Under the pieces are notes generated by a model that saw only the letters and a program-made list of their open reading frames with translations, searched no databases and was not told where the DNA came from. From a virus, in the IMG/VR virus record IMGVR_UViG_3300005293_000009, positions 1 through 64,000 of that record: a DNA stretch of 64,000 nt, one strand, 5' to 3'. Below, piece after piece: positions 831 to 35,876 of the stretch. How positions within the stretch are numbered: position 1 is the first letter of the stretch; the number at the start of each line of letters is the position of its first letter. Both the position numbers and the translations under genes were made by a program.

Positions 831-1295
831 TTATTTTCCCTTCTTGATACGGTTGATTCCGTAATATAGTGGATTCGCGCTGGACAATCCCATACGCTTT
901 GCGATGTTCGACATAGACAACCCTGCCTCATAGTGCTTGTGCAGGGTCAGGTGGTACTCGTACGGCGTCCCCTCGGCCTTGACCTTGAGAATATCCTCCA
1001 CCGCAGCTTCGTAGGCTTCTGGTGAGAACTTTTTCCGCGCACGATGTGATGACGGCGGTACGTCCTTGTTGACGACTCGCCGCCGAACGCCAGCGTACTG
1101 CACATTCAGACGCTTCGCCATTGCTAGGAGTGAACCGCCCTTCTCGTAGTACTCGCACAGCAAGCGCGTGTATTCGCGGCTCGCGTCGTGCTGAGGCGAA
1201 ACCGTGTCTCTGGAGCCAAAAGCTTTCTTCGCAAGCTCCAGGTGAGGGAGGATGAGGGCTACATACTCATCCAGGAGCGCGCTGTCGGGGGTCAT
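831..1295 (-). CDS. Helix-turn-helix DNA-binding protein (leaderless)
   Basis: A 154-residue protein. I start it at the ATG at 1295 rather than at the longer upstream start, because a -10 TATAAT sits exactly six bases before it and a -35 TTGACT further up, so the message would begin on this ATG. Two helix-turn-helix-like segments are visible: one near residues 52-70 (S-L-L-A-M-A-K-R-L-N-V) and one near the C-terminus (A-G-L-S-M-S-N-I-A-K-R-M-G-L). Both have the spacing of homeodomain-like/resolvase-type helices. It may regulate the adjoining leftward lysis genes, or the rightward genes starting 85 bp away, but no target is shown. Confidence 0.75.
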   Translation of the reverse strand: MTPDSALLDEYVALILPHLELAKKAFGSRDTVSPQHDASREYTRLLCEYYEKGGSLLAMAKRLNVQYAGVRRRVVNKDVPPSSHRARKKFSPEAYEAAVEDILKVKAEGTPYEYHLTLHKHYEAGLSMSNIAKRMGLSSANPLYYGINRIKKGK

Positions 1296-1301
1296 GGTTC
1301 G

Positions 1302-1331
1302 ATTATATACATGCCGTCTCTGCCGAGTCAA
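1302..1331 (-). promoter_or_regulatory. Leaderless promoter of the leftward block
   Basis: The -35 TTGACT and -10 TATAAT are separated by 18 bases. The -10 lies six bases before the ATG at 1295, so the predicted first transcribed base is in the start codon. Confidence 0.8.
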
Positions 1332-1345
1332 GCCGAAATTGCAAC

Positions 1346-1374
1346 TTGACGGAAAGATGTTCGTGAGGTAGGCT
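1346..1374 (+). promoter_or_regulatory. Leaderless promoter, rightward
   Basis: The -35 TTGACG and -10 TAGGCT are 17 bases apart and the -10 is six bases before the ATG at 1381. It is divergent from the leftward promoter at 1302-1331, only 14 bases away, so a bound regulator could affect both. Confidence 0.85.
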
Positions 1375-1380
1375 GCTCTC

Positions 1381-1605
1381 ATGGCAGTTTTCAGAACGAA
1401 GGACCGCGAGAAGCGGCGTGAATGGAAAGCGTATCACGCGACCGCGATGAGCCGCGCCCGCGATGCGGTCTACTGGACCGATCCCGAGACTTCAATCGAG
1501 ACATATGAAGCGGAGCAGTGGGAAGACTACAAGGCCTTCATGATCCGTGAAGGGCAGACGCACGTAAACCACGAACGATTCTTGAAGGAGCTACGCAAAG
1601 CATGA
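1381..1605 (+). CDS. Small hypothetical protein
   Basis: A 74-residue protein of no family I recognise. It is charged, with a basic N-terminus (K-D-R-E-K-R-R-E-W-K) and a Trp/Tyr-rich middle, and is probably helical and cytoplasmic. The start is fixed by the leaderless promoter just upstream. It overlaps the next gene by four bases (ATGA), so the two are translationally coupled. Confidence 0.75.
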   Translation: MAVFRTKDREKRREWKAYHATAMSRARDAVYWTDPETSIETYEAEQWEDYKAFMIREGQTHVNHERFLKELRKA

Positions 1606-2036
1606 CTGATTACCCTGAAGAGATTCTTGGTGAATACGATGACGACGGTACGATGGTGAACAGCCTTGAAAACCTGAAGGAGGCTGTCATCGGCCACCGA
1701 ATCGTGTCCGCCGAGCGAAAGAAGTGGACCGAGAAGCGCTCCTACAGCGACTACGAGTACCCGATGGAGGCCATGGTCCTCACGCTCGACAACGGCAAGG
1801 AGGTCCGCCTGCATGAGGGCGGGGACTGCTGCGCCTACACCGAAGTGCGTGGCTTCCTGCTCAACCCCGAGCTAGTGGATCACGTAATCACTGGCGTAGG
1901 CACGACAGACGGCTTCGATACCTGGCACATCTACGCGGACCTCGGAGACGTAGTGGCGCTGAATGTGGCGTGGTCACCGGGGAACCCCTTCTACTACGGC
2001 TATGGATTCAACATCGAGGTCGTTGACCACTCGTGA
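1602..2036 (+). CDS. DUF7448-like protein
   Basis: A 144-residue protein with the pattern I-V-S-A-E near residue 36, L-D-N-G-K-E, G-G-D-C-C-A-Y-T-E-V near residue 74, and a C-terminal N-P-F-Y-Y-G-Y-G-F. These resemble the DUF7448 family found in actinobacterial phages; its function is not known. It starts within the end of the previous gene (ATGA), and its stop overlaps the GTG of the next gene. Family call is from memory of the motif, moderately sure. Confidence 0.75.
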   Translation: MTDYPEEILGEYDDDGTMVNSLENLKEAVIGHRIVSAERKKWTEKRSYSDYEYPMEAMVLTLDNGKEVRLHEGGDCCAYTEVRGFLLNPELVDHVITGVGTTDGFDTWHIYADLGDVVALNVAWSPGNPFYYGYGFNIEVVDHS

Positions 2037-2203
2037 CCTATACCGTTTACGATTGCGCTTGCGGTGAGCACATAGGTGCTGTAGGCTGGACAGACGGCGT
2101 ACATAACGCGACCTGGCTGTGGCTCAAGCACAATCAGGAGAGGCACCCAGAATGGCTGGACGAACATGACAGAACAAGAACCGACAACCCTTTTCAAGGC
2201 TGA
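2033..2203 (+). CDS. Small Cys/His protein, GTG start
   Basis: A 56-residue frame from a GTG that overlaps the preceding stop (GTGA) to a TGA inside the next gene. It contains C-A-C-G-E-H near the N-terminus, then W-L-W-L-K-H, H-P-E-W and a further His, suggestive of a small metal-binding or treble-clef-like fold. Coupling and residue pattern support a real gene, but it overlaps the nucleotidyltransferase start by 38 bases. Function unknown. Confidence 0.6.
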   Translation: MTYTVYDCACGEHIGAVGWTDGVHNATWLWLKHNQERHPEWLDEHDRTRTDNPFQG

Positions 2204-2909
2204 GTGGGGCTCTCGCGCGTACGGCACGAACACCGCTACGTCCGACCGAGACCTCATTCAGGTCGTCATCGAGCCTCCCGAGTACATCACTGGATTGAGC
2301 GAGTTCCGTCCGAAGCACGAGTCCACCGCCGAGCAGGGCGCTCGCAGCTTTGCCGACGACACCGATACGGTGACGTACGGCCTCCAGAAGTATGCCGCTC
2401 TCGCTGTGGACGGTAACCCTCAGGTGCTCGCTACGCTGTGGCTGCGCGAGTTCATCGAGTACCACGAGTGGTTCAGTTTCCTCCAGAACAACCGCCGTCT
2501 CTGTGTGTCCAAGAACGCCGGTCGAAAGTACCTCGGTTATATGAAGAGCCAGCGATACAACCTCGAAGGTCTGAAGGGCGGCAAGACGAATCGTCCCGAG
2601 CTTGTGCACACTCATGGGTATGATACTAAGTTCGCCATGCACGCAGTTCGCCTGGGATATCAGGGGAATGAACTGATGGAGACAGGCAATATCTCCCTCC
2701 CTATGGAGGGGGAAGCCCTCGAAACTTGCCAGGCTATTCGCGCCGGTAAGATGACGAAGGACGAGTGCCTGGAGCTTCTGACTGTTCTGGAGTTTGGATT
2801 GGAGACCGCTATTCTCCACTCGGACTTCCCGGAGAGGGGAGACCGTGGCCTCATGAGCCAAATCCTGCACGACATCTACCTGATTGATTGGGACCGTAAC
2901 TATGCCTAA
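2166..2909 (+). CDS. RlaP-like nucleotidyltransferase (RNA repair type)
   Basis: A 247-residue protein. Near residue 15 it has G-S-R-A-Y-G-T-N-T-A-T-S-D-R-D, the G-S/x10/D-x-D active-site signature of DNA polymerase beta-fold nucleotidyltransferases, matching the RlaP/YcgL group linked to RNA repair. The catalytic acids would be the two Asp in S-D-R-D. It is followed by a 2H phosphoesterase and, further on, phosphoesterases and a HAD phosphatase, which supports an RNA-end-processing role. The next gene overlaps its end by eight bases. Substrate is unknown; a tRNA or nucleotide-modifying role is equally possible. Confidence 0.8.
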   Translation: MTEQEPTTLFKAEWGSRAYGTNTATSDRDLIQVVIEPPEYITGLSEFRPKHESTAEQGARSFADDTDTVTYGLQKYAALAVDGNPQVLATLWLREFIEYHEWFSFLQNNRRLCVSKNAGRKYLGYMKSQRYNLEGLKGGKTNRPELVHTHGYDTKFAMHAVRLGYQGNELMETGNISLPMEGEALETCQAIRAGKMTKDECLELLTVLEFGLETAILHSDFPERGDRGLMSQILHDIYLIDWDRNYA

Positions 2910-3441
2910 CCTGCCAATGCCTGAGGGGCTGGGGACACCAGACCTCGAATGCGTGATGATTGACATCGCGCCGCTGGACGTGCTCAACATCCTGCACCCG
3001 ACCGCCGAGAATGAACTATTCTTCGGCACCACGCCTGAACTGAAGTACGCTCAGGGCGCGGTCGGTGCGACCAAGCCGCACGTCACGCTGCTGTTCGGCA
3101 TCCACCCGAGCGCGAGCTATCACCGCTGGGTGTGGGCGGTGCTCAAGGATTGGACGCCTGAGCCGATCAAGATCACCGAGGTTGGTGTCTTCCCGGTGCG
3201 TGACGAGGACCAGGAGTATCGGGTCGTCATCGGCCACGTCGAGAAGACCCCGAACCTCCTAGAGGCTCGTGCACGTCTAGAGACCCTAGACTACACAGAC
3301 GGATTCCCCGAATACAAGCCTCACGTCACCCTTGCATACATCAAGCGTGACGCCGACGAGCACCGTTGGATTCAGCGGCTCGGTGAGGAATACAACGGCA
3401 AGGTTTTCCCCGTTACCGGAGTAAATCTGGGAGACGACTGA
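2902..3441 (+). CDS. 2H phosphoesterase (LigT / 2'-5' RNA ligase-like)
   Basis: 179 residues from the ATG at 2902. Two H-V-T-L motifs, with His at residues 60 and 141, are the paired H-x-T signature of 2H phosphoesterases, which open 2',3'-cyclic phosphates or 2'-5' linkages in RNA. The second sits in Y-K-P-H-V-T-L-A-Y, typical of LigT. It overlaps the RlaP-like gene and is presumably co-expressed. Its role may be to process cleaved RNA ends or to degrade cyclic-nucleotide defence signals; the sequence does not decide between these. Confidence 0.85.
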   Translation: MPNLPMPEGLGTPDLECVMIDIAPLDVLNILHPTAENELFFGTTPELKYAQGAVGATKPHVTLLFGIHPSASYHRWVWAVLKDWTPEPIKITEVGVFPVRDEDQEYRVVIGHVEKTPNLLEARARLETLDYTDGFPEYKPHVTLAYIKRDADEHRWIQRLGEEYNGKVFPVTGVNLGDD

Positions 3442-3443
3442 GC

Positions 3444-3472
3444 TTGACAGACCGCATCGCTGCTAGTAAGGT
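3444..3472 (+). promoter_or_regulatory. Leaderless promoter
   Basis: TTGACA and TAAGGT with a 17-base spacer; the -10 is six bases before the ATG at 3479. Confidence 0.85.
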
Positions 3473-3478
3473 AGAAGC

Positions 3479-4087
3479 ATGACAAAGCGATTCTTCACAA
3501 GCGACCAGCACATCGGACATAAGTTCGTTGCTGGCACACGCGGCTTTGCCGACCCCGCTGAGCACGACCGTGTGCTCGCTGAGAAGTGGGATGCGGTCGT
3601 AGGTCCAGACGACACGGTGTTCGTACTGGGGGACATCTCGATCAACCCGAAGCGCGATGGTGCCTGGGACTGGTTTCGAGTCCGCCCCGGCAAGAAGCAC
3701 CTGATCGCTGGAAACCACGATGAGGTCCACGCGATGCACTCCAAGGCGCTTCAGGCGCAGCAGGACCCTCGCTGGACCGAGACGTTTGCCACGATCAACA
3801 CTTGGGCGCGTCTGAAGGTTCAGGGCCGCACGCTGCTGATGAGCCACCACCCGTACGACGGTGAGGGCTCGCGGGATATCGAGGACCGGAATGTCGAGTA
3901 CCGACTGAAGGACTCTGGATTCCCGTTGCTGCACGGTCACACGCACGCCAAGCATCGCGTTCACACGTCTGCGCTGGGTTCCCCCCAGTTTCATGTCGGC
4001 GTGGACGCCTGGGACTTCGAGCTTGTCCCGGAAGCAACCATCGTAGAGTGGCTGGAGTTCCTGCCACCGAGCCCGCAGGGGACGTGA
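3479..4087 (+). CDS. Calcineurin-like metallophosphoesterase
   Basis: A 202-residue protein with all the metal-binding blocks of the family: D9-x-H11, G51-D52, G78-N79-H80-D81, a S-H-H-P motif near 121-124 and G-H-T-H near 153-156. It is predicted to hydrolyse phosphomonoesters or diesters using two metal ions in the cytoplasm. Its close context (nucleotidyltransferase, 2H enzyme, HAD phosphatase) suggests nucleic-acid-end or nucleotide processing. It is transcribed from its own leaderless promoter. Confidence 0.9.
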   Translation: MTKRFFTSDQHIGHKFVAGTRGFADPAEHDRVLAEKWDAVVGPDDTVFVLGDISINPKRDGAWDWFRVRPGKKHLIAGNHDEVHAMHSKALQAQQDPRWTETFATINTWARLKVQGRTLLMSHHPYDGEGSRDIEDRNVEYRLKDSGFPLLHGHTHAKHRVHTSALGSPQFHVGVDAWDFELVPEATIVEWLEFLPPSPQGT

Positions 4088-4092
4088 CAAGT

Positions 4093-4731
4093 ATGAATCC
4101 GCTATACATCTGGGGTGGTCCCTGGCGTGACATCGACTACGTAATACGTGGTCGTGATGTTGTGGACATTGGGCTGCAAAAAACTCACCTGGAGCCTGAC
4201 ACACTTGAAGTAACACTCATAGGGGACTCCGCCGCGCGCATTATCGCGGCTATCGAAGGCTACCTTCCGGATACGGAGCCGACGCCTGAGCCGGTGAATC
4301 GTCAGGACGAGGCGCTAGCTGCGGCCCGCCGTGACGCCCTTGAGGCGAAGCGGCGGGCTCAAGCTGCCGAGGATGCACACACCGCGCTAGAGGATACCCT
4401 CGCTGATTATGAAGGCGAGATTGAGACCCTTCGTGCAGAGGTTGCACGACTTAAAGTTGCAAATGCTATGACGGTTTCCTTCGACCCGGCACCCCCTGGA
4501 GGGCCACGTCCGAACTCAACTGGATTTGCAACAGGGGGGTATGTCAGCGGGAAGGGCCGTACCCTCTCGGAACAGGTCGAGACGCTAGATCGTTGGGTAC
4601 GCAGGGAGCGGGTCCGGAGGCATCCTATGGATGAGCCCTGGCACACCGAGTACCTGAATCAGCCAATTCTGTCGGCTGAGGCCAGAGCACATCTCGAAAA
4701 GTACGACCCCTTTACATACGGAGACAACTAA
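4093..4731 (+). CDS. Coiled-coil hypothetical protein
   Basis: 212 residues from the ATG at 4093, just after the phosphoesterase stop. Residues about 70-140 (A-L-A-A-A-R-R-D-A-L-E-A-K onward) have a strong heptad pattern and should form a coiled coil. The flanks are compact N-terminal and Gly/Pro-rich C-terminal parts. I do not recognise a family. Its stop overlaps the next gene start by one base (TAATG). Confidence 0.75.
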   Translation: MNPLYIWGGPWRDIDYVIRGRDVVDIGLQKTHLEPDTLEVTLIGDSAARIIAAIEGYLPDTEPTPEPVNRQDEALAAARRDALEAKRRAQAAEDAHTALEDTLADYEGEIETLRAEVARLKVANAMTVSFDPAPPGGPRPNSTGFATGGYVSGKGRTLSEQVETLDRWVRRERVRRHPMDEPWHTEYLNQPILSAEARAHLEKYDPFTYGDN

Positions 4732-5624
4732 TGAAGCTAGGCATTCTTGGGGACCTGCACGGCAACATCGCCGCAGGCCGCTTCATGCTGTGGTCGATGG
4801 GCCAGATGGGCATCGATACCGTCATCCATGTAGGTGACTTCGGTATTTACTCGACTAATGACGGTATGAAGTTCGCCAGCAGGATGAACGAATACGCAAA
4901 GTTGCTGGACATCACGATCATTGTGGTGCCAGGTAACCACGAGAACTGGCGAATCATCAACGAGCTTACCGGAGACAACCGGACGAAGCTCGCCATGTAT
5001 CGCTCGAATATCTTCATTGCGCCGCGTGGTTATCGTTACACGTTCGATGGTGTTAGCTTCGTGATGCTCGGTGGTGCGCCCTCGGTGGACCGCAACTGGC
5101 GGGCTGCGGCTGATCGTAAGCGCGCCAACAAGGGCGAGTTCCAGGCTAACCAGAATTGGTATTGGGAAGAGCAGATCACTGCCGCTGACGTGGACTATGT
5201 GGTGGCTGGCGGCTACGCGGACGTGATGATCGGCCACGATGCCCCCCACGGTATCCAGGGGATAGAGAGCCGGATCAAGGGAAACCCTCACGGTTTCCAC
5301 ATTGCTGATATCCTCTATGCGGAGGATGGGCGGAAGCTGATGACTGAGGCTTTTCAGGGTGTGGCACCGCGATTCTTCTTCCACGGCCACTACCACTTCC
5401 CGGTGAACGAGTGGATTCAGCGACCTAAAGGTGAGTATGGTCTTGACAAGACTCACGTAATCGGGCTAGACTGTGAGTTCAACAACTATTCTATGGCGAT
5501 CCTCGACACGGTTGAGCAGAGCGCCTGGAATGTTGACCACAAAACACTGCTCTTCCAATATCGAAAGGATGGAATCGGAACATGGCCCTCGCACGCCTCT
5601 ACGAAGACATCGATGGATGCCTGA
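4731..5624 (+). CDS. Second calcineurin-like metallophosphoesterase
   Basis: A 297-residue protein with G-D-L-H-G near residue 7, H-V-G-D-F near 35, P-G-N-H-E-N near 65, I-G-H-D-A-P-H near 170 and H-G-H-Y-H-F near 220. This is a complete binuclear metallophosphoesterase site, of a different subfamily from the gene at 3479. Larger inserts between motifs suggest a distinct substrate. It is coupled to the coiled-coil gene upstream; the HAD gene starts within its last 43 bases. Confidence 0.9.
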   Translation: MKLGILGDLHGNIAAGRFMLWSMGQMGIDTVIHVGDFGIYSTNDGMKFASRMNEYAKLLDITIIVVPGNHENWRIINELTGDNRTKLAMYRSNIFIAPRGYRYTFDGVSFVMLGGAPSVDRNWRAAADRKRANKGEFQANQNWYWEEQITAADVDYVVAGGYADVMIGHDAPHGIQGIESRIKGNPHGFHIADILYAEDGRKLMTEAFQGVAPRFFFHGHYHFPVNEWIQRPKGEYGLDKTHVIGLDCEFNNYSMAILDTVEQSAWNVDHKTLLFQYRKDGIGTWPSHASTKTSMDA

Positions 5625-6133
5625 ACGCAAGCTGGAACGCTCGCGTATGGCGTGACAAAGAGAACCCTGAAGACCTGGGCGGATACCAGCGTGGCTGGGC
5701 GCACCCCTGTCACGACGACTTCGGCGTAGAGCGGGAAGTGTCCATTGCGAAGTACCGCATGGAGTACAACGAGCGTCTTATCCGGGCGATGAACAACCTC
5801 TCGGTCGAGTTCGTCTGGGCGACCACCTGGCGTCAGGACGCTATCGGGGTGGGCATTCTGATGGGGCTACTTCACAGCCCTCAGCGCGTGCTACACCCGC
5901 TGGACGGTCAGACGCGATTCCCCTCAATCAAATGGAAGTTCGATGCGATCCTCCATGAGCAGGACCACGACCCCTCACCGTTCATTGCCGTGGACGATGA
6001 GTGGGACTCGGATCGGGGCTACTACCGAGAGACCCTTGAGAGCATCGGCGGGCTAGTAATCTGCCCGGATTTCAACTTCGGAATCACCCCAGCGCACATC
6101 TCGCAGATGGAGCGCTACCTGGCAAAGTTCTAG
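5582..6133 (+). CDS. HAD phosphatase of the RNA-repair (HAD_SAK) type
   Basis: A 183-residue protein. Near its start it carries D9-I-D11-G, the HAD nucleophile motif, followed by W-A-T-T-W-R near residue 80 and V-D-D-E-W near 139. These fit the HAD domain of Swiss-Army-knife RNA repair proteins, where it acts as an end phosphatase. AAGGA lies nine bases before the ATG. Overlap with the phosphoesterase gene implies a shared transcript. Substrate is inferred from the family only. Confidence 0.75.
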   Translation: MALARLYEDIDGCLNASWNARVWRDKENPEDLGGYQRGWAHPCHDDFGVEREVSIAKYRMEYNERLIRAMNNLSVEFVWATTWRQDAIGVGILMGLLHSPQRVLHPLDGQTRFPSIKWKFDAILHEQDHDPSPFIAVDDEWDSDRGYYRETLESIGGLVICPDFNFGITPAHISQMERYLAKF

Positions 6134-7308: not shown

Positions 7309-10300
7309 GTGGCGGTCACTTTCGTTCGCAGTCACGTCGCGGAGTTCGTCAAGGCGGCGGGCACGACCGATGCCTACGCGCTGACTTCTCTCGTACCCGC
7401 AGGCAACCTCCTGGTCATGACGCTGGTGCATGACAATGCGGCAGTGGTCGCCAACTCGGTCGTGTCCTCGATCAGCAAGCCTGCCGGGGAGACTGCCTCG
7501 TGGGTGTTCCTCGGGCGAGCACAGCACCCGACATCCACCAGCGCTGGTGCGTTCGCCAACGGTGAGATGTGGGCGATCAAAACCACAGTGGACTGGCCGA
7601 ACGCGACCTCTCTGACGGTCACGTACGGTGCCTCGATCACGATGAAGGCGCAGAACATCCTGGAGTTCTCCGGGGCTGAGGCAGTCCTGCGCTCTACGGT
7701 CGGCACGGCGTACACCGCCGTCGCCGGTGGTGTGGCTATGGCTAGTACCAGCGGCACCACTCCGGTCGTCGGTGACCTCGCTGTCGGCCTGATCTTCGGC
7801 TCCAACCTCTCCGCCGCCCAGTCCGGGGATAACGACACCACGGGCGGCGCGTGGTCTAGCGTATTCGGGCTGGGTTCCACAGGCGGCAATGCGACGACCA
7901 ACAACTTCGGCATTGGCCAATACAAGATCATAACTACCACGTCTCATCAGTCGTTTAGTAGCCCAGGTGCATTGACGACGGGCAACGGTTCCATCGTCGC
8001 GATCCTGCGAGCCACTCCCGACCCGGTGATCAGTCAGGCCGCGTTCCGGTTCTACGAGGACGGCACCGAGTCCGGGTCCATCGCGCTCGCCGCGCAGAAC
8101 ACCGCACCGCTGGTGAACATCTCCGCTGGTGATGCAGTATTCCAGCTTCGGGTGCGGATGCAGGAGACCGGCAACGGCAATGTTCCGCCGACCGACAACT
8201 TCCAGTTGCAGTTCGAGAAGAACGCCAGCGGGACGTGGACGAACGTCTCACCTGCGCCTGGTCCGGTCATGTCCTACGACAGCCCGCGCCTGACCAACGC
8301 GGGCGCAACTACCAGCCGCCTCACCGGAGGCACGGGCTCCTTCGCCGCTGGTGAGATTTCTGAGGGTGGGGTGGTTGACAGCCTCGGCTGGGCGCAGAGT
8401 GGCTACACCGAACTGCTCTACTCGTTGAAGCTGATCGCCGCCGACCTCGCGCCCGGCGACACGCTCCGGTTTCGGGTGCTCCGAAATGGTCTGACAACCG
8501 GAGTAACGTACACTCAAACCCCGACTCTCACTGCTTTTGCCGGTCCTATGCCGCTCGCGGGGACCGTCGCCATTAGGAGCACGGTCCCTGCCGCCTCTCT
8601 TGTCCAAGACTCTGTAGTCCTTACACCACTGTATCCATCCTGGTCCCAGGAATTCGACATCAAAGAGACGACGGTGACTGTGCCGCCAGGGTACGGCATC
8701 CTCGTGGTTGACCTAGCGCAGTTCGACTCCGGGGCGCAGGTTACCGATCTGGCGGTTAACGCTGATTTTCCAGAGGCCGTACACACCAGCGGAAACTACA
8801 ATTTCTGGCTATGCGCTCCAACCCCCGGCTCAGTAAACCTGTGGGCCGAGTATTCGGGGGGTATGCCCTACGACAACGCCGCGATGGTTTGGCTTGTCAG
8901 TCTGAATTCTGACGGAAATCTTCCGGAGATTTACGACATCGACGAACAGTATGATAAGACTGTGGATGTTGCTACGGCATCAAAGGGTGCCGTTATTTTC
9001 GTTATCCACTCCAGAGACGGTTGGGATTTCTACCCAGAGCCCCTACCCTCTCTTGTCGCACTCGTTCCGTCATATATCCAGTCGTCTAACGAGGGATTCG
9101 GATTCTTCCACGCTCTCCCAACCCCAGACAGTGGCTCTATGGCCTTCGGAGTCGATTTCTCTGGCGGCTGGGGTTCGACGGCGATAGGTGTGTCGCTAAA
9201 GCCCGCCCCCCTTGCTGGGGGAGGTACGACACATATCGCGGCTGGTACCATTGCAATATCTAGTACGGCATCCGGAAACGCCACAGTACCAAGCGTCGGA
9301 ACCACTTACCAGGTATCCGGAACAGTATCCGGAGCTACGGCACTAACAGGCACGGCAACGAAGCGTACGCAAGTTACGGGCGCAGTCACTGCGGTGAGTG
9401 TGTCATCGGGTTCCGCCACTAGAGTACCTGTTACGTACCAGGCATCCGGAGTTAAGGTACTTACTTCGACTGTCTCAGGGACCGCCACGGTAGTTGCGGG
9501 CGCTCAGACTTATCCGGCATCCGGAGTTAAGGTACTTACTTCAGCAATTTCTGGCACCGTCTCGAAGAGAACCCAAGTATCGGGGGCGCTCGCTTTCGTT
9601 TCGGTGAATTCCGGAGCCGCGAAACTGACAGCTACGGCTTCCGGAGCGGTGGTGGGTGTGTCCGCTGTTTCCGGAACTCTGTCCAAGACCACTCAGGCCT
9701 TCGGTACTTCCTCTGCGGTATCCTCTGTTTCCGGAAACCCAAACAAGACCACTCAGGCCTCCGGCAGCCTGTCGGTAACTACCGACTCTACGGGTAGCGC
9801 TACAGTGGTGTCCACTGGCACCACATATCAGGCAACAGGTTCTATTAGCGCCTCTAGCTCTGTGTCGGGCACCGTTACAGCCCTTAAGACTATCCTTGCA
9901 CCGGGCACAGAAGTCCGTCGCAACCTGTTCCGCAATCCTTCTCCCTCCAACTCTACTACGCACTTCAGTTCAACGGGGAGCACGCTCTCCCTGGGTGTGA
10001 GCCAGTACGGCGGTCTGGCCGTATCGACGCGCACTACCATCGGCAACTACAGACTCCTGGACATGCTGACCGGCAATACGGTTGTAGCGGGCGAGAGTTA
10101 CCGCTTTCAGTTCGTATTTACGACAACGGAAGCAATGACAGGAATATATATCTATTTCCGTCCAAATGTGACCAGCAATACGAACCAAGTAACCCTGTGG
10201 AGCAACGGGTCTATTGCGAGCCCCCTCAGCTACCTACAGTTCGGCACTAATTTTACGGTACCTGCTGGTGCCGGGGACCTTACCAACTCCGGTATTGTAA

Positions 10301-13300
10301 TAGTGCAGAGCGGCTCCACGGTGGGGTCGGAGCTTAGAGTCGGTCAGGTTCTCCTTGAGCGCGGGGTTAGTGTCATGTCCCCGTGGTTTGATGGGGATTT
10401 GTGGGACACCCCTCAATTCGATTTCCAGTGGGTAGGAACACCAGAGGACTCGGCGTCTGTGGCCCTTGAAGTGGGCTCGAAGATCGCTATCAATTCTTCA
10501 GTATACGGGCCTCCAAAGGATGCTGCACTTAGAGCAGAGTACGGATTCAACGAAGGCAGCGGAGACTTCATTGCCGGTGAGGGACCGGATGCTGTTACTC
10601 TCGAAGGCTCTCCCCCGGCGTGGTACACAGACGGAGTATACGGCACTGCATTTGGTAGCGCCACTGACCCTGACGCTTACTTCTACTCCTCGCTGGATGC
10701 GGCTGGGCTGGATGAGTTCTCCAGCACTATATGGCTAAAGCCTCACACCTCGATATATGGTGGTGGGGAGATTTGGTGGGGGCCTGCCGCACTCTGTTTT
10801 ACTGTAATAGACGGCGTGGCTTCACTATCTTACAAGTTGAGACGCCCCACTGGTGTGACAATCGTCGTCGCGTTCGACACCACTATCCCGATGTTCGCCT
10901 GGTCACATGTTGCGGTAAGTGTTATTCGTCCTCAGGGTGCCATTAAGCTATACCTGAATGGTGTTCTAGTCGAAACGAAGGGATTCTCTCCACACTCTGC
11001 GGCGGGACTCCTCTACGATATTGAGGCGTGGCTTGACACCGTTGCGGTAGATGACTTCAGATTCTTCGAAGGCATTCTTACTGAGTCCGAAGTTTCTGCG
11101 TATATGTTGCAGAGCGTGGGGGAGCCGCCTCCGCCGCTGCCGACATCGGGCGCGATTGCCGTCACATCCGCTACGGACGGGGCTGTCTCCCTACAGCGTG
11201 CCGCTGTCGGTGTTGTCCCTAGCTCATCGTCCGTTTCCGGTACGCCTACAAAGCGCTCTCCGGTGGCGGGTTCGGTTGTAGTGTTGTCTATTGCGAGCGG
11301 TGCGCTCACACTCAAGACTGCCGTCAGCGCCACGCTCCCCATTGTCTCGACGGTGAGCGGCGCACCCATCACGAGCGCTAAGCCGGTAACCGGAACGGTT
11401 ATTGCAGTCTCCGCAGCTAACGGTGCCCCGACTACCCGCACGCAGGTCGCTGGAGCGGTGGCGTCGGGGTCGGCGGTCGCTGGAGCGGTGGCGTCGGGGT
11501 CGGCGGTCGCTGGAGCCGCACCTATTGTCTCTGCAATAACAGGCGCAGCCGGTCGCACGACCTACATCGGCGGTGTCATCTCGGCGGTCACCGCCACATC
11601 TGGATCAATCACTAACCGCACGCAGGTCGTCGGTACGCTGCCTATTGTTTCAACGGTAGCCGGAACAGCTATCCCGCCGACCAGCATCAACGGAACGGTG
11701 TCGGTAGTTTCGTCTTCGGTCGGTATAGTCTTCGCTAGTATGCAGGTAACCGGTGCGGTGGACATCGCCTCGACCGCCAACACCGGATTCGCTTCGCAGA
11801 ATAGTCTTATCGGCGGAACGGTCAGCACTGTCGTCGGCAGTTCCGGTGACGCTATTCGACGTGCGCCTACTGCCGGTGCTGTTCAGATCGTATCGACCGT
11901 TTCCGGTGTTTCGACAAAGCGGACCCCTGTTTCGGGAACTGTCCCTGTAGTCAGTACCACAACAGGAATTTCGAAGCTGACCGGGGTCACGTCAGGTGCG
12001 ATCACTGTAGTTTCGGCTGCGGCGGGCACGTCCACCAAGACCACCCAGGCGGCGGGCACGTCTGCCATTGTCTCCGAGGTAGTCGGGTCGGAGTCGCTAC
12101 GCTCCGCCGTCTCCAGTCAAGTAAATGTCGTCTCGACCCAGACGGGCTCGGTTGCTACAGGGTCGTCTCAGAACGGCATCGTGCGAATCTACTCTGCGGT
12201 GTCCGGTGCTGTTACCGCCACGCTCCCGATAGCGGGGTCGGTCGTAATCACGAGTGACGTTTCCGGTGAGCCGGTCAAGCTCACGTCTGCGGGCGGCGCG
12301 GTAGGGGCATCCAGCGCGGTAAGCGGTGCCTTGACAAAGGTTGGCCCGCTAACGTCTACCGTGGGGCTAGTCTCTAATACTTCTGGGTCGATACGCAGCC
12401 TACTGCCCACCGCAGGCACAGGTACGATCATCTCGACGGGTTCTGGGGCTCCCACTAAGTACACACAGGGGAGCGGGGTCGTCACCGCCACATCTACAGT
12501 GACCGGATTTGTCGTCTCCGGTAACTCCGTTGTCGCTCCTTCCATGCCCATCGTCTCTAGCGTAAGCGGGGCAGTGACCGCCAGGGGTACAACCGCTGGG
12601 GTTGTGCCTGTCCAGGTCGCCGTAACAGGAGCACCGGCGAAGCGCACACCGGTTAGCGGCGCTGCCAGCCTTACCTCGTCTGTATCCGGCGCTCCGACCA
12701 AGCAGACGCAGATTACCGGCACCCCCATTCAAACCATCAGCGGTGTGGGTGGGTCTGTGCTCGGCACACTGGTGGCGGGCGGCATCGTCACCATTACCTC
12801 GACAGTTATCGGAGACACAAACCCGCCGAAGCCTGTGAGTGGTGCCGTATCTGTCGTGTCTACTGTGACCGGCAGTGCGCTGCGTCAAGTTCCGACCTTC
12901 GGTACGGTGTCAGTCGTCAGCACCGCCCAGGGTGTCCCGGCTGGTACCCTCTCCGCCACTTCGGGACCCGTTGTGGTGGGCTCGGGAGTCGCCGGAACTG
13001 TGGCCCTCCGGAGAGTCGCCGGGGGCACCGTTGCTGCTGTCTCGGGTGTTCTCGGGACGGTTGGGAAGGTGTCTTCGGTATCCGGAACCACGGAAATTAC
13101 AGCCGCCACATTCGGTGCAGCTACGCGACTGGTACAGCTTGCGGGTATAGTCACGATCCTCTCCAGCGTGGTAGGCATCTCGTCCTCCCTGGAGACGCTC
13201 CACGTCAAGATCGCGGGACAGGAAATTATGCTCGCTCCGGGTATGCTGTTCTGGAAGAAGAATGGTGTGGAGGTTCCTGTGGGTATCGCGCGTAAGACAA

Positions 13301-13332
13301 ACGGTATCGAGCAGCCGTACTGGACTATTTAG
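7309..13332 (+). CDS. Giant repetitive tail fibre / minor tail protein with LamG-like domain
   Basis: 2007 residues from a GTG at 7309, preceded by a G-rich GGGGAGGGGG run about 8 bases upstream. Residues 1-220 form a beta-rich N-terminal part. About 640-860 and 1285-1960 are arrays of a roughly 20-residue unit with the core S-G-x3-K-x-T-Q-x2-G-x4-V-S. Between the arrays lie an R-N-L-F-R-N-P jelly-roll-like region (about 863-1050) and a LamG/concanavalin-like lectin region (about 1075-1266). The C-terminus is a short non-repetitive cap ending at residue 2007. The protein is predicted to be an extended fibre that binds host surface glycans. A perfect 30-bp tandem duplication lies inside. The reading frame is intact throughout. 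Confidence 0.9.
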   Translation: MAVTFVRSHVAEFVKAAGTTDAYALTSLVPAGNLLVMTLVHDNAAVVANSVVSSISKPAGETASWVFLGRAQHPTSTSAGAFANGEMWAIKTTVDWPNATSLTVTYGASITMKAQNILEFSGAEAVLRSTVGTAYTAVAGGVAMASTSGTTPVVGDLAVGLIFGSNLSAAQSGDNDTTGGAWSSVFGLGSTGGNATTNNFGIGQYKIITTTSHQSFSSPGALTTGNGSIVAILRATPDPVISQAAFRFYEDGTESGSIALAAQNTAPLVNISAGDAVFQLRVRMQETGNGNVPPTDNFQLQFEKNASGTWTNVSPAPGPVMSYDSPRLTNAGATTSRLTGGTGSFAAGEISEGGVVDSLGWAQSGYTELLYSLKLIAADLAPGDTLRFRVLRNGLTTGVTYTQTPTLTAFAGPMPLAGTVAIRSTVPAASLVQDSVVLTPLYPSWSQEFDIKETTVTVPPGYGILVVDLAQFDSGAQVTDLAVNADFPEAVHTSGNYNFWLCAPTPGSVNLWAEYSGGMPYDNAAMVWLVSLNSDGNLPEIYDIDEQYDKTVDVATASKGAVIFVIHSRDGWDFYPEPLPSLVALVPSYIQSSNEGFGFFHALPTPDSGSMAFGVDFSGGWGSTAIGVSLKPAPLAGGGTTHIAAGTIAISSTASGNATVPSVGTTYQVSGTVSGATALTGTATKRTQVTGAVTAVSVSSGSATRVPVTYQASGVKVLTSTVSGTATVVAGAQTYPASGVKVLTSAISGTVSKRTQVSGALAFVSVNSGAAKLTATASGAVVGVSAVSGTLSKTTQAFGTSSAVSSVSGNPNKTTQASGSLSVTTDSTGSATVVSTGTTYQATGSISASSSVSGTVTALKTILAPGTEVRRNLFRNPSPSNSTTHFSSTGSTLSLGVSQYGGLAVSTRTTIGNYRLLDMLTGNTVVAGESYRFQFVFTTTEAMTGIYIYFRPNVTSNTNQVTLWSNGSIASPLSYLQFGTNFTVPAGAGDLTNSGIVIVQSGSTVGSELRVGQVLLERGVSVMSPWFDGDLWDTPQFDFQWVGTPEDSASVALEVGSKIAINSSVYGPPKDAALRAEYGFNEGSGDFIAGEGPDAVTLEGSPPAWYTDGVYGTAFGSATDPDAYFYSSLDAAGLDEFSSTIWLKPHTSIYGGGEIWWGPAALCFTVIDGVASLSYKLRRPTGVTIVVAFDTTIPMFAWSHVAVSVIRPQGAIKLYLNGVLVETKGFSPHSAAGLLYDIEAWLDTVAVDDFRFFEGILTESEVSAYMLQSVGEPPPPLPTSGAIAVTSATDGAVSLQRAAVGVVPSSSSVSGTPTKRSPVAGSVVVLSIASGALTLKTAVSATLPIVSTVSGAPITSAKPVTGTVIAVSAANGAPTTRTQVAGAVASGSAVAGAVASGSAVAGAAPIVSAITGAAGRTTYIGGVISAVTATSGSITNRTQVVGTLPIVSTVAGTAIPPTSINGTVSVVSSSVGIVFASMQVTGAVDIASTANTGFASQNSLIGGTVSTVVGSSGDAIRRAPTAGAVQIVSTVSGVSTKRTPVSGTVPVVSTTTGISKLTGVTSGAITVVSAAAGTSTKTTQAAGTSAIVSEVVGSESLRSAVSSQVNVVSTQTGSVATGSSQNGIVRIYSAVSGAVTATLPIAGSVVITSDVSGEPVKLTSAGGAVGASSAVSGALTKVGPLTSTVGLVSNTSGSIRSLLPTAGTGTIISTGSGAPTKYTQGSGVVTATSTVTGFVVSGNSVVAPSMPIVSSVSGAVTARGTTAGVVPVQVAVTGAPAKRTPVSGAASLTSSVSGAPTKQTQITGTPIQTISGVGGSVLGTLVAGGIVTITSTVIGDTNPPKPVSGAVSVVSTVTGSALRQVPTFGTVSVVSTAQGVPAGTLSATSGPVVVGSGVAGTVALRRVAGGTVAAVSGVLGTVGKVSSVSGTTEITAATFGAATRLVQLAGIVTILSSVVGISSSLETLHVKIAGQEIMLAPGMLFWKKNGVEVPVGIARKTNGIEQPYWTI
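9226..9890 (+). repeat. First array of about 20-residue fibre repeats
   Basis: Repeated coding units with TCCGGA-containing boundaries and the protein core S-G-x3-K-x-T-Q-x2-G. Copies diverge at DNA level but keep period and phase. Confidence 0.8.
11161..13190 (+). repeat. Second array of about 20-residue fibre repeats
   Basis: Some thirty diverged units of the same V-S-x-V-S-G type after the lectin-like region, mostly S-G-x5-T-x3-G-x3-V-S. Confidence 0.8.
11446..11505 (+). repeat. Perfect 30-bp tandem duplication inside the fibre gene
   Basis: Two identical 30-bp copies in tandem, followed by the start of a third, encode V-A-G-A-V-A-S-G-S-A twice (from about residue 1380). Identity at every base points to a recent in-frame duplication. 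Confidence 0.9.
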
Positions 13333-21844: not shown

Positions 21845-22021
21845 ATGAACAAGTTCCGCGACAAGATCGCACACGCCGTGTCCAACTGGGTGCTGAACCA
21901 TATCGCCACGGAAGACTACCGTGAGAAGCTGGAGTTCATCATCGTCCTCGGCATGAATGAGCTTGAGCAGCGCGCTCAGGACGAGCGTGAATACATCGCA
22001 TGGAAGAAGGGCCAGGCATGA
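21845..22021 (+). CDS. Small helical protein before the prs-like gene
   Basis: 58 residues, charged and helical, ending K-K-G-Q-A. It is the first gene of a leaderless transcript and is coupled by ATGA to the PRPP-synthetase-like gene. It may serve as a leader cistron that gives the second gene ribosome access. Unknown family. Confidence 0.75.
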   Translation: MNKFRDKIAHAVSNWVLNHIATEDYREKLEFIIVLGMNELEQRAQDEREYIAWKKGQA

Positions 22022-22950
22022 CCATCAAATTCACCGCCAAGCACAAGAGCGGTTTCAGCGTCCACTCTCAGCTTTCCGCGTTCCTCTTCCCCGATGGGGC
22101 GGCGCACATCAAGGGCGCTGACAACGAGGCGAACGAGGGCGAGTTCCTGTACGAGGTCGCGGACCTTCGCGGCTTCAGCCACACCGACCTCTTCACGCTA
22201 GCCATGTGGGCCAACGCCTGCGACAACCGTGCCGTGGACAAGGTGCTCATCCTGCCGTACCTCCCCGGTGCGCGCATGGATCGTGGCAACCCGGAAGGTG
22301 CTGCCGTCTACTCGTGGTTCATCCTGAACGATGTCAACCCCCGCCAGATCATCACCATCGATCCGCACTCGGAGCGGGCACGGAACAATTTCTACGAGGT
22401 CTACGAGCGGGACGGTCGGCTGGACAAGTTCACCGTCTTCCCTGTGGAGCGCATCATCCGCAGGGGAGTGCAGGACGCCACCAGCGACTCCAAGCCGAAC
22501 AACACCTACCAGGGTGTCATCGCCCCGGACAAGGGGGCTCACGACCGAGCAGCGCGTGCTGCGGAGGTCATGGGGGTTCCGGTCTACACCGGAGGCAAGA
22601 CGCGCGACTTCGAAACCGGCAAGATCACCGGCTTCCACATGGAGGACGAGCTTCCCGACGAGGGCCGCTTCCTCATTGTAGATGACATCTGTGACGGTGG
22701 CGGAACCTTCCTCGCTCTCGCTGAGGCTACGGGCCTTCCGAAGGAACGGCTGGACCTGTGGGTCACGCACGGCATCTTCTCGAAGGGGCTCAAGGAACTG
22801 CTGAACCATTTCGGAACCATCCACACCACGGACTCGTACCTCGGCGGTGATGAGAATGACCCCATCCTCGCTCAGGTCATGATGAGCGGGGGGCGTGTCA
22901 AGATTCACCCCCTCACACCCTACCTGTACCCGGAGATTAGCCCCGCCTAG
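22018..22950 (+). CDS. prs: Ribose-phosphate pyrophosphokinase-like (PRPP or ADPR-PP synthetase)
   Basis: 310 residues. L-P-Y-L-P-G-A-R-M-D-R corresponds to the ATP-site block of PRPP synthetases, D-P-H-S-E to the metal/His block, and L-I-V-D-D-I-C-D-G-G-G-T (V221-T230) to the PRPP-binding loop. It should make PRPP from ribose-5-phosphate and ATP, feeding the NAMPT encoded nearby. The sequence is divergent from bacterial housekeeping Prs. A known phage relative (Adps of the NARP1 pathway) instead pyrophosphorylates ADP-ribose; motif reading cannot tell which substrate is used here. Confidence 0.85.
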   Translation: MTIKFTAKHKSGFSVHSQLSAFLFPDGAAHIKGADNEANEGEFLYEVADLRGFSHTDLFTLAMWANACDNRAVDKVLILPYLPGARMDRGNPEGAAVYSWFILNDVNPRQIITIDPHSERARNNFYEVYERDGRLDKFTVFPVERIIRRGVQDATSDSKPNNTYQGVIAPDKGAHDRAARAAEVMGVPVYTGGKTRDFETGKITGFHMEDELPDEGRFLIVDDICDGGGTFLALAEATGLPKERLDLWVTHGIFSKGLKELLNHFGTIHTTDSYLGGDENDPILAQVMMSGGRVKIHPLTPYLYPEISPA

Positions 22951-22954
22951 GGGG

Positions 22955-22984
22955 TTGACAAACCTAACCAGAAAGACGTAGACT
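22955..22984 (+). promoter_or_regulatory. Leaderless promoter of lipoprotein gene
   Basis: TTGACA and TAGACT with an 18-base spacer; the -10 is six bases before the ATG at 22991. Confidence 0.85.
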
Positions 22985-22990
22985 AAGAAC

Positions 22991-23407
22991 ATGAAAACAC
23001 GCACAAAGATCACAGGCGTAGGCCTCGCGGCAGTCCTGGGCGTCTTCGCCCTCACCGGGGCCGCATGTGCCTCCGACGCCGACAAGGCTTCCGAGAACAT
23101 CAGCACCGCCGCCGAAGCCTTCGAGGTCCAGCGTACGCTGGTCGCTACCAACGGCATCACCGGACAGGTCATGCTCTTCGCTGAGGGTCGCTGCTCGTTC
23201 GAGCACCCCAGCAAGATTCGCATCGACATCACATGCAAGTACGGCCCGGATGAGTACCGCCGTCACACCTACATCAAGGGTGATCAGGATCAGGTCGTCA
23301 TCAGCCAGGAAGAGTCCATCGATGTGAGCGAGTACCACTCGCGCATCGTCATCAAGCCGCAGAACGTCATCCCCGAGTTCGACATCATGGTGGGCGAGGA
23401 CGAGTAG
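22991..23407 (+). CDS. Predicted lipoprotein
   Basis: 138 residues with a basic n-region (K-T-R-T-K), a hydrophobic stretch and the lipobox L-T-G-A-A-C, giving a mature lipid-modified Cys near residue 27. The mature part is about 110 residues, mostly beta, with two further Cys that could pair. A phage-encoded surface lipoprotein could exclude superinfecting phages, as known for others, but no homologue is recognised. It sits between the prs-like and NAMPT genes as a single-gene unit with its own promoter and terminator. Confidence 0.8.
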   Translation: MKTRTKITGVGLAAVLGVFALTGAACASDADKASENISTAAEAFEVQRTLVATNGITGQVMLFAEGRCSFEHPSKIRIDITCKYGPDEYRRHTYIKGDQDQVVISQEESIDVSEYHSRIVIKPQNVIPEFDIMVGEDE

Positions 23408-23417
23408 TCCGACCCCT

Positions 23418-23451
23418 AAGTAGCCCCGGTCTTCGGATCGGGGCTACTTCC
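23418..23451 (+). terminator. Hairpin terminator after lipoprotein gene
   Basis: A perfect eleven-base stem (AAGTAGCCCCG / CGGGGCTACTT) with a ten-base loop. Confidence 0.85.
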
Positions 23452-23461
23452 ATATCTGGAC

Positions 23462-23491
23462 TTGACACCGATGCGATCATCGGTATAGACT
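23462..23491 (+). promoter_or_regulatory. Promoter of NAMPT gene
   Basis: TTGACA with TAGACT at 18 bases, or TATAGA at 16. A leader of about 35 bases ends in AAAGG before the ATG at 23530. Confidence 0.8.
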
Positions 23492-23529
23492 GAGTACAGA
23501 CCGAAAGACAATCAACCAGAAAGGCTCGC

Positions 23530-25047: not shown

Positions 25048-25408
25048 GACGAATTCGCTCAAGGAAGTTCCGTACGGTACAAAGCGGCTGAGGGTGGGGA
25101 AGGACCTTGTGGAGTACCCTACCCTCCTGGAGTACACCTACGGCAGTCCGGAGTATCCCTCTGCGGGTGTCACCTACAAGGACAACCTGCCGTTCGAGGC
25201 CACGCTGAAGATCGTCTCTCTTGAGCGAGGACGTTCGGCGGCACGATTCTGGTTTCAAGATATTGATACCGGCACCTACTATCCGTTCTTCGGGCAGACC
25301 CTTGTTGATATGTTGGAGCGTACTGTGGCAGATCATGGTGTCGTTGAGGGCACCTGGATTGCCGTCAAGAAGGGTTCCAACTACGGCATCGAACTGTACA
25401 CCCCCTGA
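25040..25408 (+). CDS. Hypothetical protein coupled to NAMPT
   Basis: 122 residues, beta-rich, with A-R-F-W-F-Q-D-I-D-T-G near residue 70 and no membrane segment. It overlaps the NAMPT stop. I do not recognise the family; a small modulator of the NAD+ enzymes is only a guess from position. Confidence 0.75.
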   Translation: MAKTNSLKEVPYGTKRLRVGKDLVEYPTLLEYTYGSPEYPSAGVTYKDNLPFEATLKIVSLERGRSAARFWFQDIDTGTYYPFFGQTLVDMLERTVADHGVVEGTWIAVKKGSNYGIELYTP

Positions 25409-25410
25409 GG

Positions 25411-25439
25411 TTGACACCGGTTACTGGAGACGCTAGGCT
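25411..25439 (+). promoter_or_regulatory. Leaderless promoter
   Basis: TTGACA and TAGGCT with a 17-base spacer, six bases before the ATG at 25446. Confidence 0.85.
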
Positions 25440-25445
25440 TTAATC

Positions 25446-25565
25446 ATGCGAAGACGACTTCGAATCTGGATTTACTGGCTGAGCGAGAACGCCGCAGCCG
25501 TCCGGGGGGATTTCCCCACAGCCCGCTATTACCTCGCCAGGAGAATAGAAGAGGAAAACAAGTGA
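25446..25565 (+). CDS. 39-residue basic peptide
   Basis: Begins M-R-R-R-L-R-I-W-I-Y-W-L and ends E-E-E-N-K. It is the first cistron of a leaderless transcript and overlaps the next gene by GTGA. It may be a real peptide with an amphipathic basic/aromatic helix or a translation-coupling leader. Confidence 0.65.
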   Translation: MRRRLRIWIYWLSENAAAVRGDFPTARYYLARRIEEENK

Positions 25566-26351: not shown

Positions 26352-26363
26352 GTGCGGTAGGCT
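26335..26363 (+). promoter_or_regulatory. Leaderless promoter of pnuC operon
   Basis: TTGACG and TAGGCT with a 17-base spacer, six bases before the ATG at 26370. Confidence 0.85.
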
Positions 26364-26369
26364 TACTCC

Positions 26370-29706: not shown

Positions 29707-30441
29707 ATGACAAACATCAAGACCTACCTGGTCGGCGGCGCTGTGCGCGACGAACTGCTGGGCCTGCGGTCAAAGGACCTGGACTACGTGGTGGTGGTGG
29801 AAGATGCGCCTACCGTCGAGTGGGCCTGGACCGGGATGCGGGATTACCTGATCGACCAGGGCTTCAAGATTTTCCTGGAGACCCCCGAGTACTTCACGAT
29901 CCGGGCGCGCTTCCCGAAGGGTCACGTCAACGAGAAGATCGTGGGTGACTTCGTGCTGGCTCGGAAGGACGGCCCCTACACGGATGGTCGCCGCCCGGAC
30001 TGGGTTGAGGCAGGCACCCTGGAGGATGATCTGCGGCGTCGAGACTTTACAGTCAACGCCCTGGCGAAGGCTGAGGATGGTTCGATCATCGACCTGTTCG
30101 GTGGTCAGGCTGATCTGGCGGATCGGCGTCTGCATGCGGTGGGAGACCCCCGAGAGCGGTTGACCGAGGATGCTCTGCGCGCCTTCCGTGCGGTTCGCTT
30201 CGCGATCACTAAGGGCTTCCACATCGATGACGAACTGTCGAACGCTATGCGTACGCTGCGTGTACTCGATGCGCTGGAACAGAACATTGCCGCCGAGCGA
30301 ATCAAGGATGAACTGCACCGCTGCTTCGCCTTCGATACCGTGATGACAATCAGCTTCCTGACCCGCCACTTCCCAGCGTACCTGCCTATCATGCAGGCAA
30401 AGGGCATTTGGCTTCGTCCGACGATGGAGACCCCGAAGTGA
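29707..30441 (+). CDS. CCA-adding enzyme / poly(A) polymerase-like nucleotidyltransferase
   Basis: 244 residues. G-G-A-V-R-D-E-L-L-G and S-K-D-L-D-Y-V-V carry the catalytic acids; R-R-R-D-F-T-V-N-A-L-A and D-P-R-E-R-L-T-E-D-A-L-R-A-F-R-A-V-R-F are the template-like blocks of class II tRNA nucleotidyltransferases. It is shorter than host enzymes of about 400 residues because most of the C-terminal body and tail domain are missing. It could repair tRNA CCA ends after tRNA-cleaving defences. Confidence 0.88.
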   Translation: MTNIKTYLVGGAVRDELLGLRSKDLDYVVVVEDAPTVEWAWTGMRDYLIDQGFKIFLETPEYFTIRARFPKGHVNEKIVGDFVLARKDGPYTDGRRPDWVEAGTLEDDLRRRDFTVNALAKAEDGSIIDLFGGQADLADRRLHAVGDPRERLTEDALRAFRAVRFAITKGFHIDDELSNAMRTLRVLDALEQNIAAERIKDELHRCFAFDTVMTISFLTRHFPAYLPIMQAKGIWLRPTMETPK

Positions 30442-35549: not shown

Positions 35550-35876
35550 ATGAGCATGCTACGGAATCTATTCGTTGACGACGAGCGGACCCCGCCTCCG
35601 GGAATGGACTGGGAAGTCGTCAAGACGGCAGGAGACGCCTATTCGGCGCTTTCTGGCGCAGAGTATGCCGTAGTCTCCCTAGACTACGTGCTGATCGGCT
35701 GGGAGAGCGGCTTCGATGTGGTGTGGTGGATGCATACCAACAACCGCTGGCCTACGCACGAGCTTCGCGTACATTCGTCCTCCTATATGGGGCGCGCGCA
35801 GATCATCGAGTTCGCTCAGGCGCATGCGCCTAAGGGTCTGCGGGTCATCGATGCTTCTGCTGAGCGGGGGCTGTGA
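35550..35876 (+). CDS. cREC-type receiver-like domain protein
   Basis: 108 residues. L-F-V-D10-D11-E-R-T-P-P and V-S-L-D-Y-V-L near residue 45 fit the cyclic-phosphate-processing receiver domain (cREC), a CheY-like fold found beside RNA-repair enzymes. It adds to the RNA-repair set at 2-6 kb. Assignment is by motif only. Confidence 0.7.
   Translation: MSMLRNLFVDDERTPPPGMDWEVVKTAGDAYSALSGAEYAVVSLDYVLIGWESGFDVVWWMHTNNRWPTHELRVHSSSYMGRAQIIEFAQAHAPKGLRVIDASAERGL

What the first reader, a model, noticed from the sequence alone, without database searches (positions are those of the whole stretch)
2166..6133. Cluster of RNA-repair-type enzymes
An RlaP-like nucleotidyltransferase, a 2H phosphoesterase, two metallophosphoesterases and a HAD_SAK-type phosphatase are consecutive. 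These are the end-processing activities of RNA repair systems, though no ligase is visible. A cREC protein (35550) and a CCA-enzyme-like protein (29707) elsewhere fit the theme of restoring cleaved tRNA.
Basis: partly seen in the sequence, partly recalled or inferred. Interest (0 to 1): 0.7.

Follow-up and report, generated by a model that had tools for sequence, protein, structure and literature searches.

The report
Phage RNA-repair gene cluster, ligases elsewhere
A large bacterial virus carries a conserved run of five enzymes that probably clean and rebuild broken tRNA ends, while the matching RNA-joining enzymes probably lie in a part of the genome that is missing from this sequence record; the kind of system is already predicted in the literature, so this is mainly a good new example.

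Summary
The five enzymes are real: RlaP nucleotidyltransferase, 2H phosphoesterase, two metallophosphoesterases (MPE1, MPE2) and a HAD_SAK-like phosphatase. They lie on one strand with catalytic residues intact, although an unconserved coiled-coil ORF separates the MPEs. The record is a 66-kb fragment, roughly the right third of a ~190-kb actinobacteriophage of the Cece/A3Wally type. All six long relatives keep the block (Pumpernickel lacks RlaP). All six have at least one RNA ligase (OB-fold ATP ligase and/or RtcB) 20-26 kb upstream, and the three inspected there carry 41-45 tRNAs, a Macro protein and Ro. So "no ligase visible" is best explained by truncation. cREC genes sit beside the ligases in relatives and near the MPEs in distant ones. 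MPE1 lies near ATP RNA ligases in 12/80 IMG/VR loci (0/80 for 2H loci). MPE2 occurs in tRNA arrays and near RlaP in other phages. This supports RNA-end healing for tRNA repair, as Iyer et al. 2021 predicted for jumbo phages. Main caveat: the 2H model's best solved match is a viral cGAMP phosphodiesterase (Z 15.3, next 11.5), so that gene may instead destroy immune signals. No activity has been shown. New member of a known, untested kind.

The parts
831..1382 (-). HTH-like protein, divergent from the block; candidate regulator
   Evidence: Weak HTH Pfam hits; orthologue in Cece annotated DNA binding protein
1381..1605 (+). small ORF, first of the co-directional run
   Evidence: ORF listing
1602..2036 (+). 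DUF7448 protein (phrog_2131), function unknown
   Evidence: Pfam 4.7e-15, PHROG 7e-33
2033..2203 (+). small ORF, unknown
   Evidence: no family hit
2166..2909 (+). RlaP-type Pol-beta nucleotidyltransferase
   Evidence: PF10127 5.7e-24; phrog_388 8e-56; G15 S16 / D27 D29 / D67 invariant in 24 rows; AF2 pLDDT 92.8, nearest solved fold HalB Z 10.0
2902..3441 (+). 2H (LigT-like) phosphoesterase; TTG start at 2884 less likely
   Evidence: PF13563 7e-10; two HxT motifs invariant in 28 rows; AF2 pLDDT 95.1, nearest fold penguinpox cGAMP PDE Z 15.3
3479..4087 (+). MPE1, calcineurin-like phosphoesterase (phrog_547)
   Evidence: (4e-40); metal ligands invariant; near an ATP RNA ligase homologue in 12/80 IMG/VR loci
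4093..4731 (+). coiled-coil protein of unknown function, poorly conserved and absent in some relatives
   Evidence: absent in Zooman, Big4, L010
4731..5624 (+). MPE2, calcineurin-like phosphoesterase (phrog_1649)
   Evidence: (1.7e-36); metal ligands invariant; among tRNA genes in L015, Trina, Grayson
5582..6133 (+). HAD_SAK-like phosphatase
   Evidence: PF18143 1.3e-4, below cut-off; Pumpernickel orthologue 37.1 bits, above cut-off; DxD, T, K, DD motifs invariant
29707..30441 (+). CCA-enzyme-like protein (PolyA_pol head domain), probably same programme
   Evidence: PF01743 1e-19; NF009814 CCA nucleotidyltransferase 135 bits, below its cut-off; orthologue in Cece
35550..35876 (+). cREC (cyclic-phosphate Receiver); orthologue of Cece gp154, which lies directly behind the RNA ligase
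   Evidence: PF20274 6.5e-16; match to Cece 97448-97738

Best explanation
The block is the end-healing half of a tRNA repair system of a ~190-kb actinobacteriophage. Inferred course: host anticodon nucleases or other RNases cut phage or host tRNAs. RtcB can seal 2',3'-cyclic-phosphate/5'-OH ends directly. Ends that cannot be sealed that way are healed: 2H (and cREC) open the cyclic phosphate, the MPEs and/or the HAD remove the remaining phosphate, RlaP adds back lost nucleotides, and the OB-fold ATP RNA ligase joins them; the CCA enzyme restores 3' termini. Shown here: the families, intact catalytic residues, conserved order, and genomic linkage to ligases, cREC, tRNAs and Ro. Inferred: every substrate and the order of steps. 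The ligases themselves are outside this record and are known only from relatives.
For: All six long relatives with the block have an RNA ligase 20-26 kb upstream: A3Wally ATP ligase; Cece and G001 both types; Zooman, Big4 and Pumpernickel RtcB. Cece has 45, A3Wally 43 and Pumpernickel 41 tRNAs there, with Ro, peptidyl-tRNA hydrolase and Macro. cREC genes lie directly behind the ligase in Cece, between RtcB and Rnl in G001, about 1 kb from RtcB in Zooman and Big4, and between MPE2 and RlaP or MPE1 in L012 and L013. MPE1 has a homologue of the Cece ATP RNA ligase within 8 kb, same strand, in 12/80 loci against 0/80 for 2H loci, Fisher 3e-4, across several ligase clades. MPE2 lies behind a tmRNA in an array of 31 tRNAs plus the tmRNA with Ro, close to RlaP among tRNAs in Trina, and near RNA_ligase + RtcB + tRNAs in Grayson. 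Neville: RNA ligase - PRPP synthase - NAPRT - RlaP - Ro - tRNAs. Ligase present in 11 of 13 RlaP-bearing isolates checked. Only 3 of 45 Cece tRNA genes encode CCA. Same family set predicted for RNA repair by Iyer et al. 2021.
Against: The 2H fold is nearest to a cGAMP phosphodiesterase, not to RNA CPDases, and 2H loci in general show no ATP RNA ligase within 8 kb. No KptA in any close relative, so the 2'-phosphate that a 2H would leave must be removed by an unproven MPE/HAD. Polynucleotide kinase was not searched for. Pumpernickel keeps the block without RlaP. Two RlaP-bearing isolates, Confidence and Mildred21, show no ligase. MPE2 stands beside rIIA/rIIB in Streptomyces phages. The block is 20-26 kb from the ligases, not in their operon.
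Confidence: 0.6

Rival explanations
1. Counter-signalling cluster: the 2H enzyme, with cREC, MPEs and HAD, degrades cyclic nucleotides or ADP-ribose derivatives made by host immunity (CBASS, TIR systems), working with the NAD salvage genes rather than on RNA.
For: 2H model: penguinpox cGAMP PDE Z 15.3 over 160 residues at 2.3 A, next 11.5; phage Acb1-type 9.9-10.9; weak Acb1 Pfam hit 5.4e-4. PRPP synthase and NAPRT interleave with the block in Pumpernickel and L012 and precede it in L011. Published: LigT-like PDEs repeatedly used against cGAMP (PMC11410667).
Against: Explains the 2H only; RlaP has no clear role in it, and MPE1/MPE2 linkage is to RNA ligases and tRNAs. Acb1, LigT and CPDases share the fold, so the best match does not fix the substrate. 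PADLOC models give only one weak hit, for MPE2.
Confidence: 0.25
2. Nucleotide housekeeping: a loose string of hydrolases serving nucleotide pools, alongside 5'-nucleotidase, dNMP kinase and ribonucleotide reductase.
For: 5'-nucleotidase and dNMP kinase follow the block in Cece and in distant L011; ribonucleotide reductase genes lie just upstream on the other strand in relatives.
Against: RlaP and HAD_SAK families are otherwise tied to RNA repair in the literature; cREC and RNA ligase linkage of the MPEs.
Confidence: 0.1
3. RlaP works like HalB: it synthesises short DNA or RNA oligomers or modifies 3' ends as a regulatory or counter-defence signal, not as repair.
For: HalB is the best solved structural match, Z 10.0 over 172 residues against 7.9 for the next.
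Against: 14% identity; the whole Pol-beta superfamily shares the core; the neighbourhood is RNA repair; no HalA partner was noticed among the genes inspected, though none was searched for.
Confidence: 0.05

Closest known systems
Jumbo-phage RNA repair suite predicted by Iyer et al. 2021 (PMC7824862), after Burroughs & Aravind 2016 (the latter not held, known by citation)
   Same: RlaP, 2H, HAD_SAK, cREC, CCA enzyme, RtcB and ATP ligases, TROVE/Ro and tRNAs in one phage group
   Different: Genomes are below 200 kb and infect Actinobacteria; two MPE families are added; ligases are 20-26 kb from the healing block; no KptA in close relatives
T4 Pnkp + Rnl1 tRNA repair against PrrC
   Same: Healing followed by ATP-dependent ligation (by inference)
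   Different: No T4-type Pnkp seen in the block (kinase not searched for); healing split over separate phosphoesterases; extra nucleotidyltransferase; OB-fold PHA02142-type ligase rather than Rnl1
Acb1 / avian poxvirus LigT-like cGAMP phosphodiesterases
   Same: Fold and two HxT motifs of the 2H gene
   Different: Gene sits in a block linked to RNA ligases and tRNAs; substrate untested
Hailong HalB
   Same: Closest solved fold to RlaP
   Different: 14% identity, different neighbourhood, no HalA partner noticed

Membership tests
RlaP (PF10127) | profile match and Pol-beta catalytic residues GS...DxD + third acid | tested here: met
   5.7e-24; G15, S16, D27, D29, D67 invariant in 24/24
RlaP (PF10127) | functional association with an RNA ligase in the genome | tested here: met
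   Ligase in all four RlaP-bearing long isolates of the group and in G001; the window record itself lacks one but is a fragment
RlaP (PF10127) | adds nucleotides to cleaved RNA | not testable with these tools
   no assay possible; activity is a published prediction
2H phosphoesterase superfamily | two HxT/S motifs in duplicated fold | tested here: met
   28/28 rows; fold
LigT/ThpR RNA 2',3'-CPDase (TIGR02258) | match above curated cut-off | tested here: not met
   23.7 bits against 65.7
Acb1 (PF23474) | match above curated cut-off | tested here: not met
   20.1 bits against 27; works-like claim stays open
HAD_SAK_2 (PF18143) | match above curated cut-off | tested here: inconclusive
   window 22.7 bits against 27.5; Pumpernickel orthologue 37.1 bits
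Calcineurin-like phosphoesterase | match above cut-off and metal-ligand motifs D-H/GD/GNH/H/GHxH | tested here: met
Complete phage RNA repair system | RNA ligase encoded by the same phage | tested here: inconclusive
   absent from the 66-kb fragment, present in all six long relatives
KptA-2H-Macro branch | KptA/Tpt1 present | tested here: not met
   PF01885 absent in all close relatives; Macro present

The most novel reading that the evidence does not exclude
MPE1 and MPE2 are two so far unrecognised phage families of RNA 2'/3'-end phosphatases. With RlaP and 2H they form a healing pathway without a T4-type Pnkp, coupled to a NAD-restoration gene set as one island that rescues translation.
Probability: 0.3. 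Interest if true: 0.6.

Novelty: new member of a known kind. Interest (0 to 1): 0.45.

Why it matters
RlaP and its partners have only been predicted to repair RNA, and I found no paper with a test in the library searched. This group includes cultured phages (Cece, A3Wally, Zooman, Big4, Pumpernickel) on ordinary Microbacterium hosts, with natural variants lacking RlaP or one ligase type, so the prediction can be tested genetically. The repeated linkage of two metallophosphoesterase families to RNA ligases and tRNA arrays would assign a role to widespread phage genes now called only phosphoesterase.

Tried and rejected
KptA route for the 2'-phosphate: searched and absent in close relatives. T4-Rnl1 family ligase (PF09511): only in three distant RlaP records. 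PADLOC: one weak hit only, for MPE2. PDB sequence searches for RlaP, MPE2 and HAD gave nothing useful; MPE1 matches only an uncharacterised structure, 1XM7. RlaP-ligase co-occurrence in IMG/VR (9/22 against 6/50, p 0.01) was kept only as weak support because RlaP contigs are longer and not independent. A paper search for the isolate names found nothing. Grayson gp154 first looked like a 2H gene; Pfam shows it is an RNA_ligase domain.
Full report
What is there. The window is bases 1-64000 of a 66,415-base IMG/VR virus record. On the + strand, 2166-6133 encodes RlaP, a 2H phosphoesterase, a metallophosphoesterase (MPE1), a poorly conserved coiled-coil protein, a second metallophosphoesterase (MPE2) and a HAD_SAK-like phosphatase. 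The ORFs abut, overlap slightly or are separated by short gaps, and small ORFs from 1381 on run in the same direction, so one transcription unit is likely; this is inferred. Catalytic residues are intact in every aligned homologue: the Pol-beta triad of RlaP (24 rows), the two HxT motifs of the 2H (28 rows), the metal ligands of both MPEs and the HAD motifs (6 rows each).

What genome it is. The block matches Microbacterium phages of 186-195 kb at 67-73% DNA identity. Protein-level synteny with Cece runs from Cece 120 kb to its right end and then into Cece 0-13 kb, which is its terminal repeat. The record is therefore the right end of a genome probably of about 190 kb, and it begins just before the block. 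In Cece the region 84-107 kb carries 45 tRNAs, an ATP-dependent RNA ligase (PHA02142 OB-fold + RNA_ligase), two cREC genes directly behind it, a Macro protein, an RtcB and, at 108 kb, a Ro protein. A3Wally and Pumpernickel are alike, with 43 and 41 tRNAs. Searches of whole records find at least one ligase in all six long relatives that hold the block, 20-26 kb upstream, and none in this record. Truncation best explains the missing ligase, although for this very genome its presence is not shown.

Linkage in other phages. In distant relatives (about 42% identity for MPE2) the same genes recur in shuffled order with NAD salvage genes: L011/L014 read PRPP synthase - NAPRT - RlaP - MPE1 - MPE2 - HAD - 5'-nucleotidase - dNMP kinase; L012 reads 2H - PRPP synthase - NAPRT - MPE2 - cREC - (two small ORFs) - RlaP - MPE1; L013 has MPE2 - cREC - MPE1. 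In L015 MPE2 directly follows a tmRNA inside an array of 31 tRNAs plus the tmRNA, with Ro. In Rhodococcus phage Trina, MPE2 is one small ORF from an RlaP gene among tRNAs. In Grayson it lies with an RNA_ligase gene, RtcB and tRNAs. In Gordonia phage Neville, RNA ligase, NAD salvage genes, RlaP, Ro and tRNAs are together. MPE1 has a homologue of the Cece ATP RNA ligase within 8 kb on the same strand in 12 of 80 IMG/VR loci, against 0 of 80 for 2H loci (Fisher 3e-4). These ligases fall into several clades under 60% identity; five of six examined have both the OB-fold and the RNA_ligase domain by Pfam, the sixth (L164) had no hit. These counts are not fully independent. Among 13 RlaP-bearing isolates checked, 11 have a ligase; Confidence and Mildred21 do not.

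Structure. The RlaP model (pLDDT 92.8) is closest to HalB of the Hailong defence system, Z 10.0 over 172 residues, ahead of 7.9 for the next fold. HalB was solved with oligodeoxyadenylate, so this points towards nucleic-acid-extending nucleotidyltransferases more than antibiotic-modifying ones, but at 14% identity it does not settle the substrate. The 2H model (pLDDT 95.1) is closest to penguinpox cGAMP phosphodiesterase, Z 15.3 over 160 residues at 2.3 A, clearly ahead of plant CPDase (11.5), Usb1 (11.3), Acb1-type phage enzymes (9.9-10.9) and LigT (9.9). LigT-like enzymes have been recruited against cGAMP several times (PMC11410667), so a counter-CBASS role for this gene is a serious rival.

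Mechanism. The best reading is that the block heals RNA ends and that ligases encoded upstream in the tRNA region seal them. RtcB would handle cyclic-phosphate/5'-OH breaks directly. 2H and cREC would open cyclic phosphates, MPE1/MPE2 or the HAD would remove phosphate, RlaP would replace lost nucleotides, and the ATP ligase would join. KptA is absent from the close relatives, so removal of a 2'-phosphate would fall to an MPE or the HAD; this step is unproven. A kinase was not searched for. No step has been shown biochemically here.

Known or new. Iyer et al. [quoted passage not shown] What this adds is its presence as a compact block in sub-200-kb actinophages, the likely explanation of the missing ligase, the repeated linkage of two metallophosphoesterase families to RNA ligases and tRNA arrays, and the structural warning about the 2H gene.

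Noticed in passing
window 22000-28535: NAD salvage set: PRPP synthase, NAPRT/NAMPT-like enzyme (NF006629 515 bits), PnuC-like transporter by synteny with Cece, NadR-like NMN adenylyltransferase/kinase; resembles phage NAD-restoration pathways and interleaves with the repair genes in relatives.
   Followed up: partly
window 35550-36292: cREC and the next gene are orthologues of Cece genes that lie directly behind the RNA ligase (97448-97738 and 98102-98494); here the two sit together far from that region.
   Followed up: partly
window 45909-63266: Matches Cece 0-13 kb, i.e. its terminal repeat, so the record contains the right end and most of one repeat copy.
   Followed up: no
window 7309-13332: 2007-aa protein full of short repeats, at the place where relatives carry purple acid phosphatase or other large genes; looks like a surface or fibre protein.
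   Followed up: no
window 28929-29675: HD/SpoT-like protein next to the CCA-like gene; RSH-like genes lie beside MPE1 in about ten IMG/VR loci, mostly at weak E-values.
   Followed up: no
L007/L008 (Cece tRNA region): Only 3 of 45 annotated tRNA genes encode CCA, and several anticodons occur twice, which may relate to evading anticodon nucleases.
   Followed up: no
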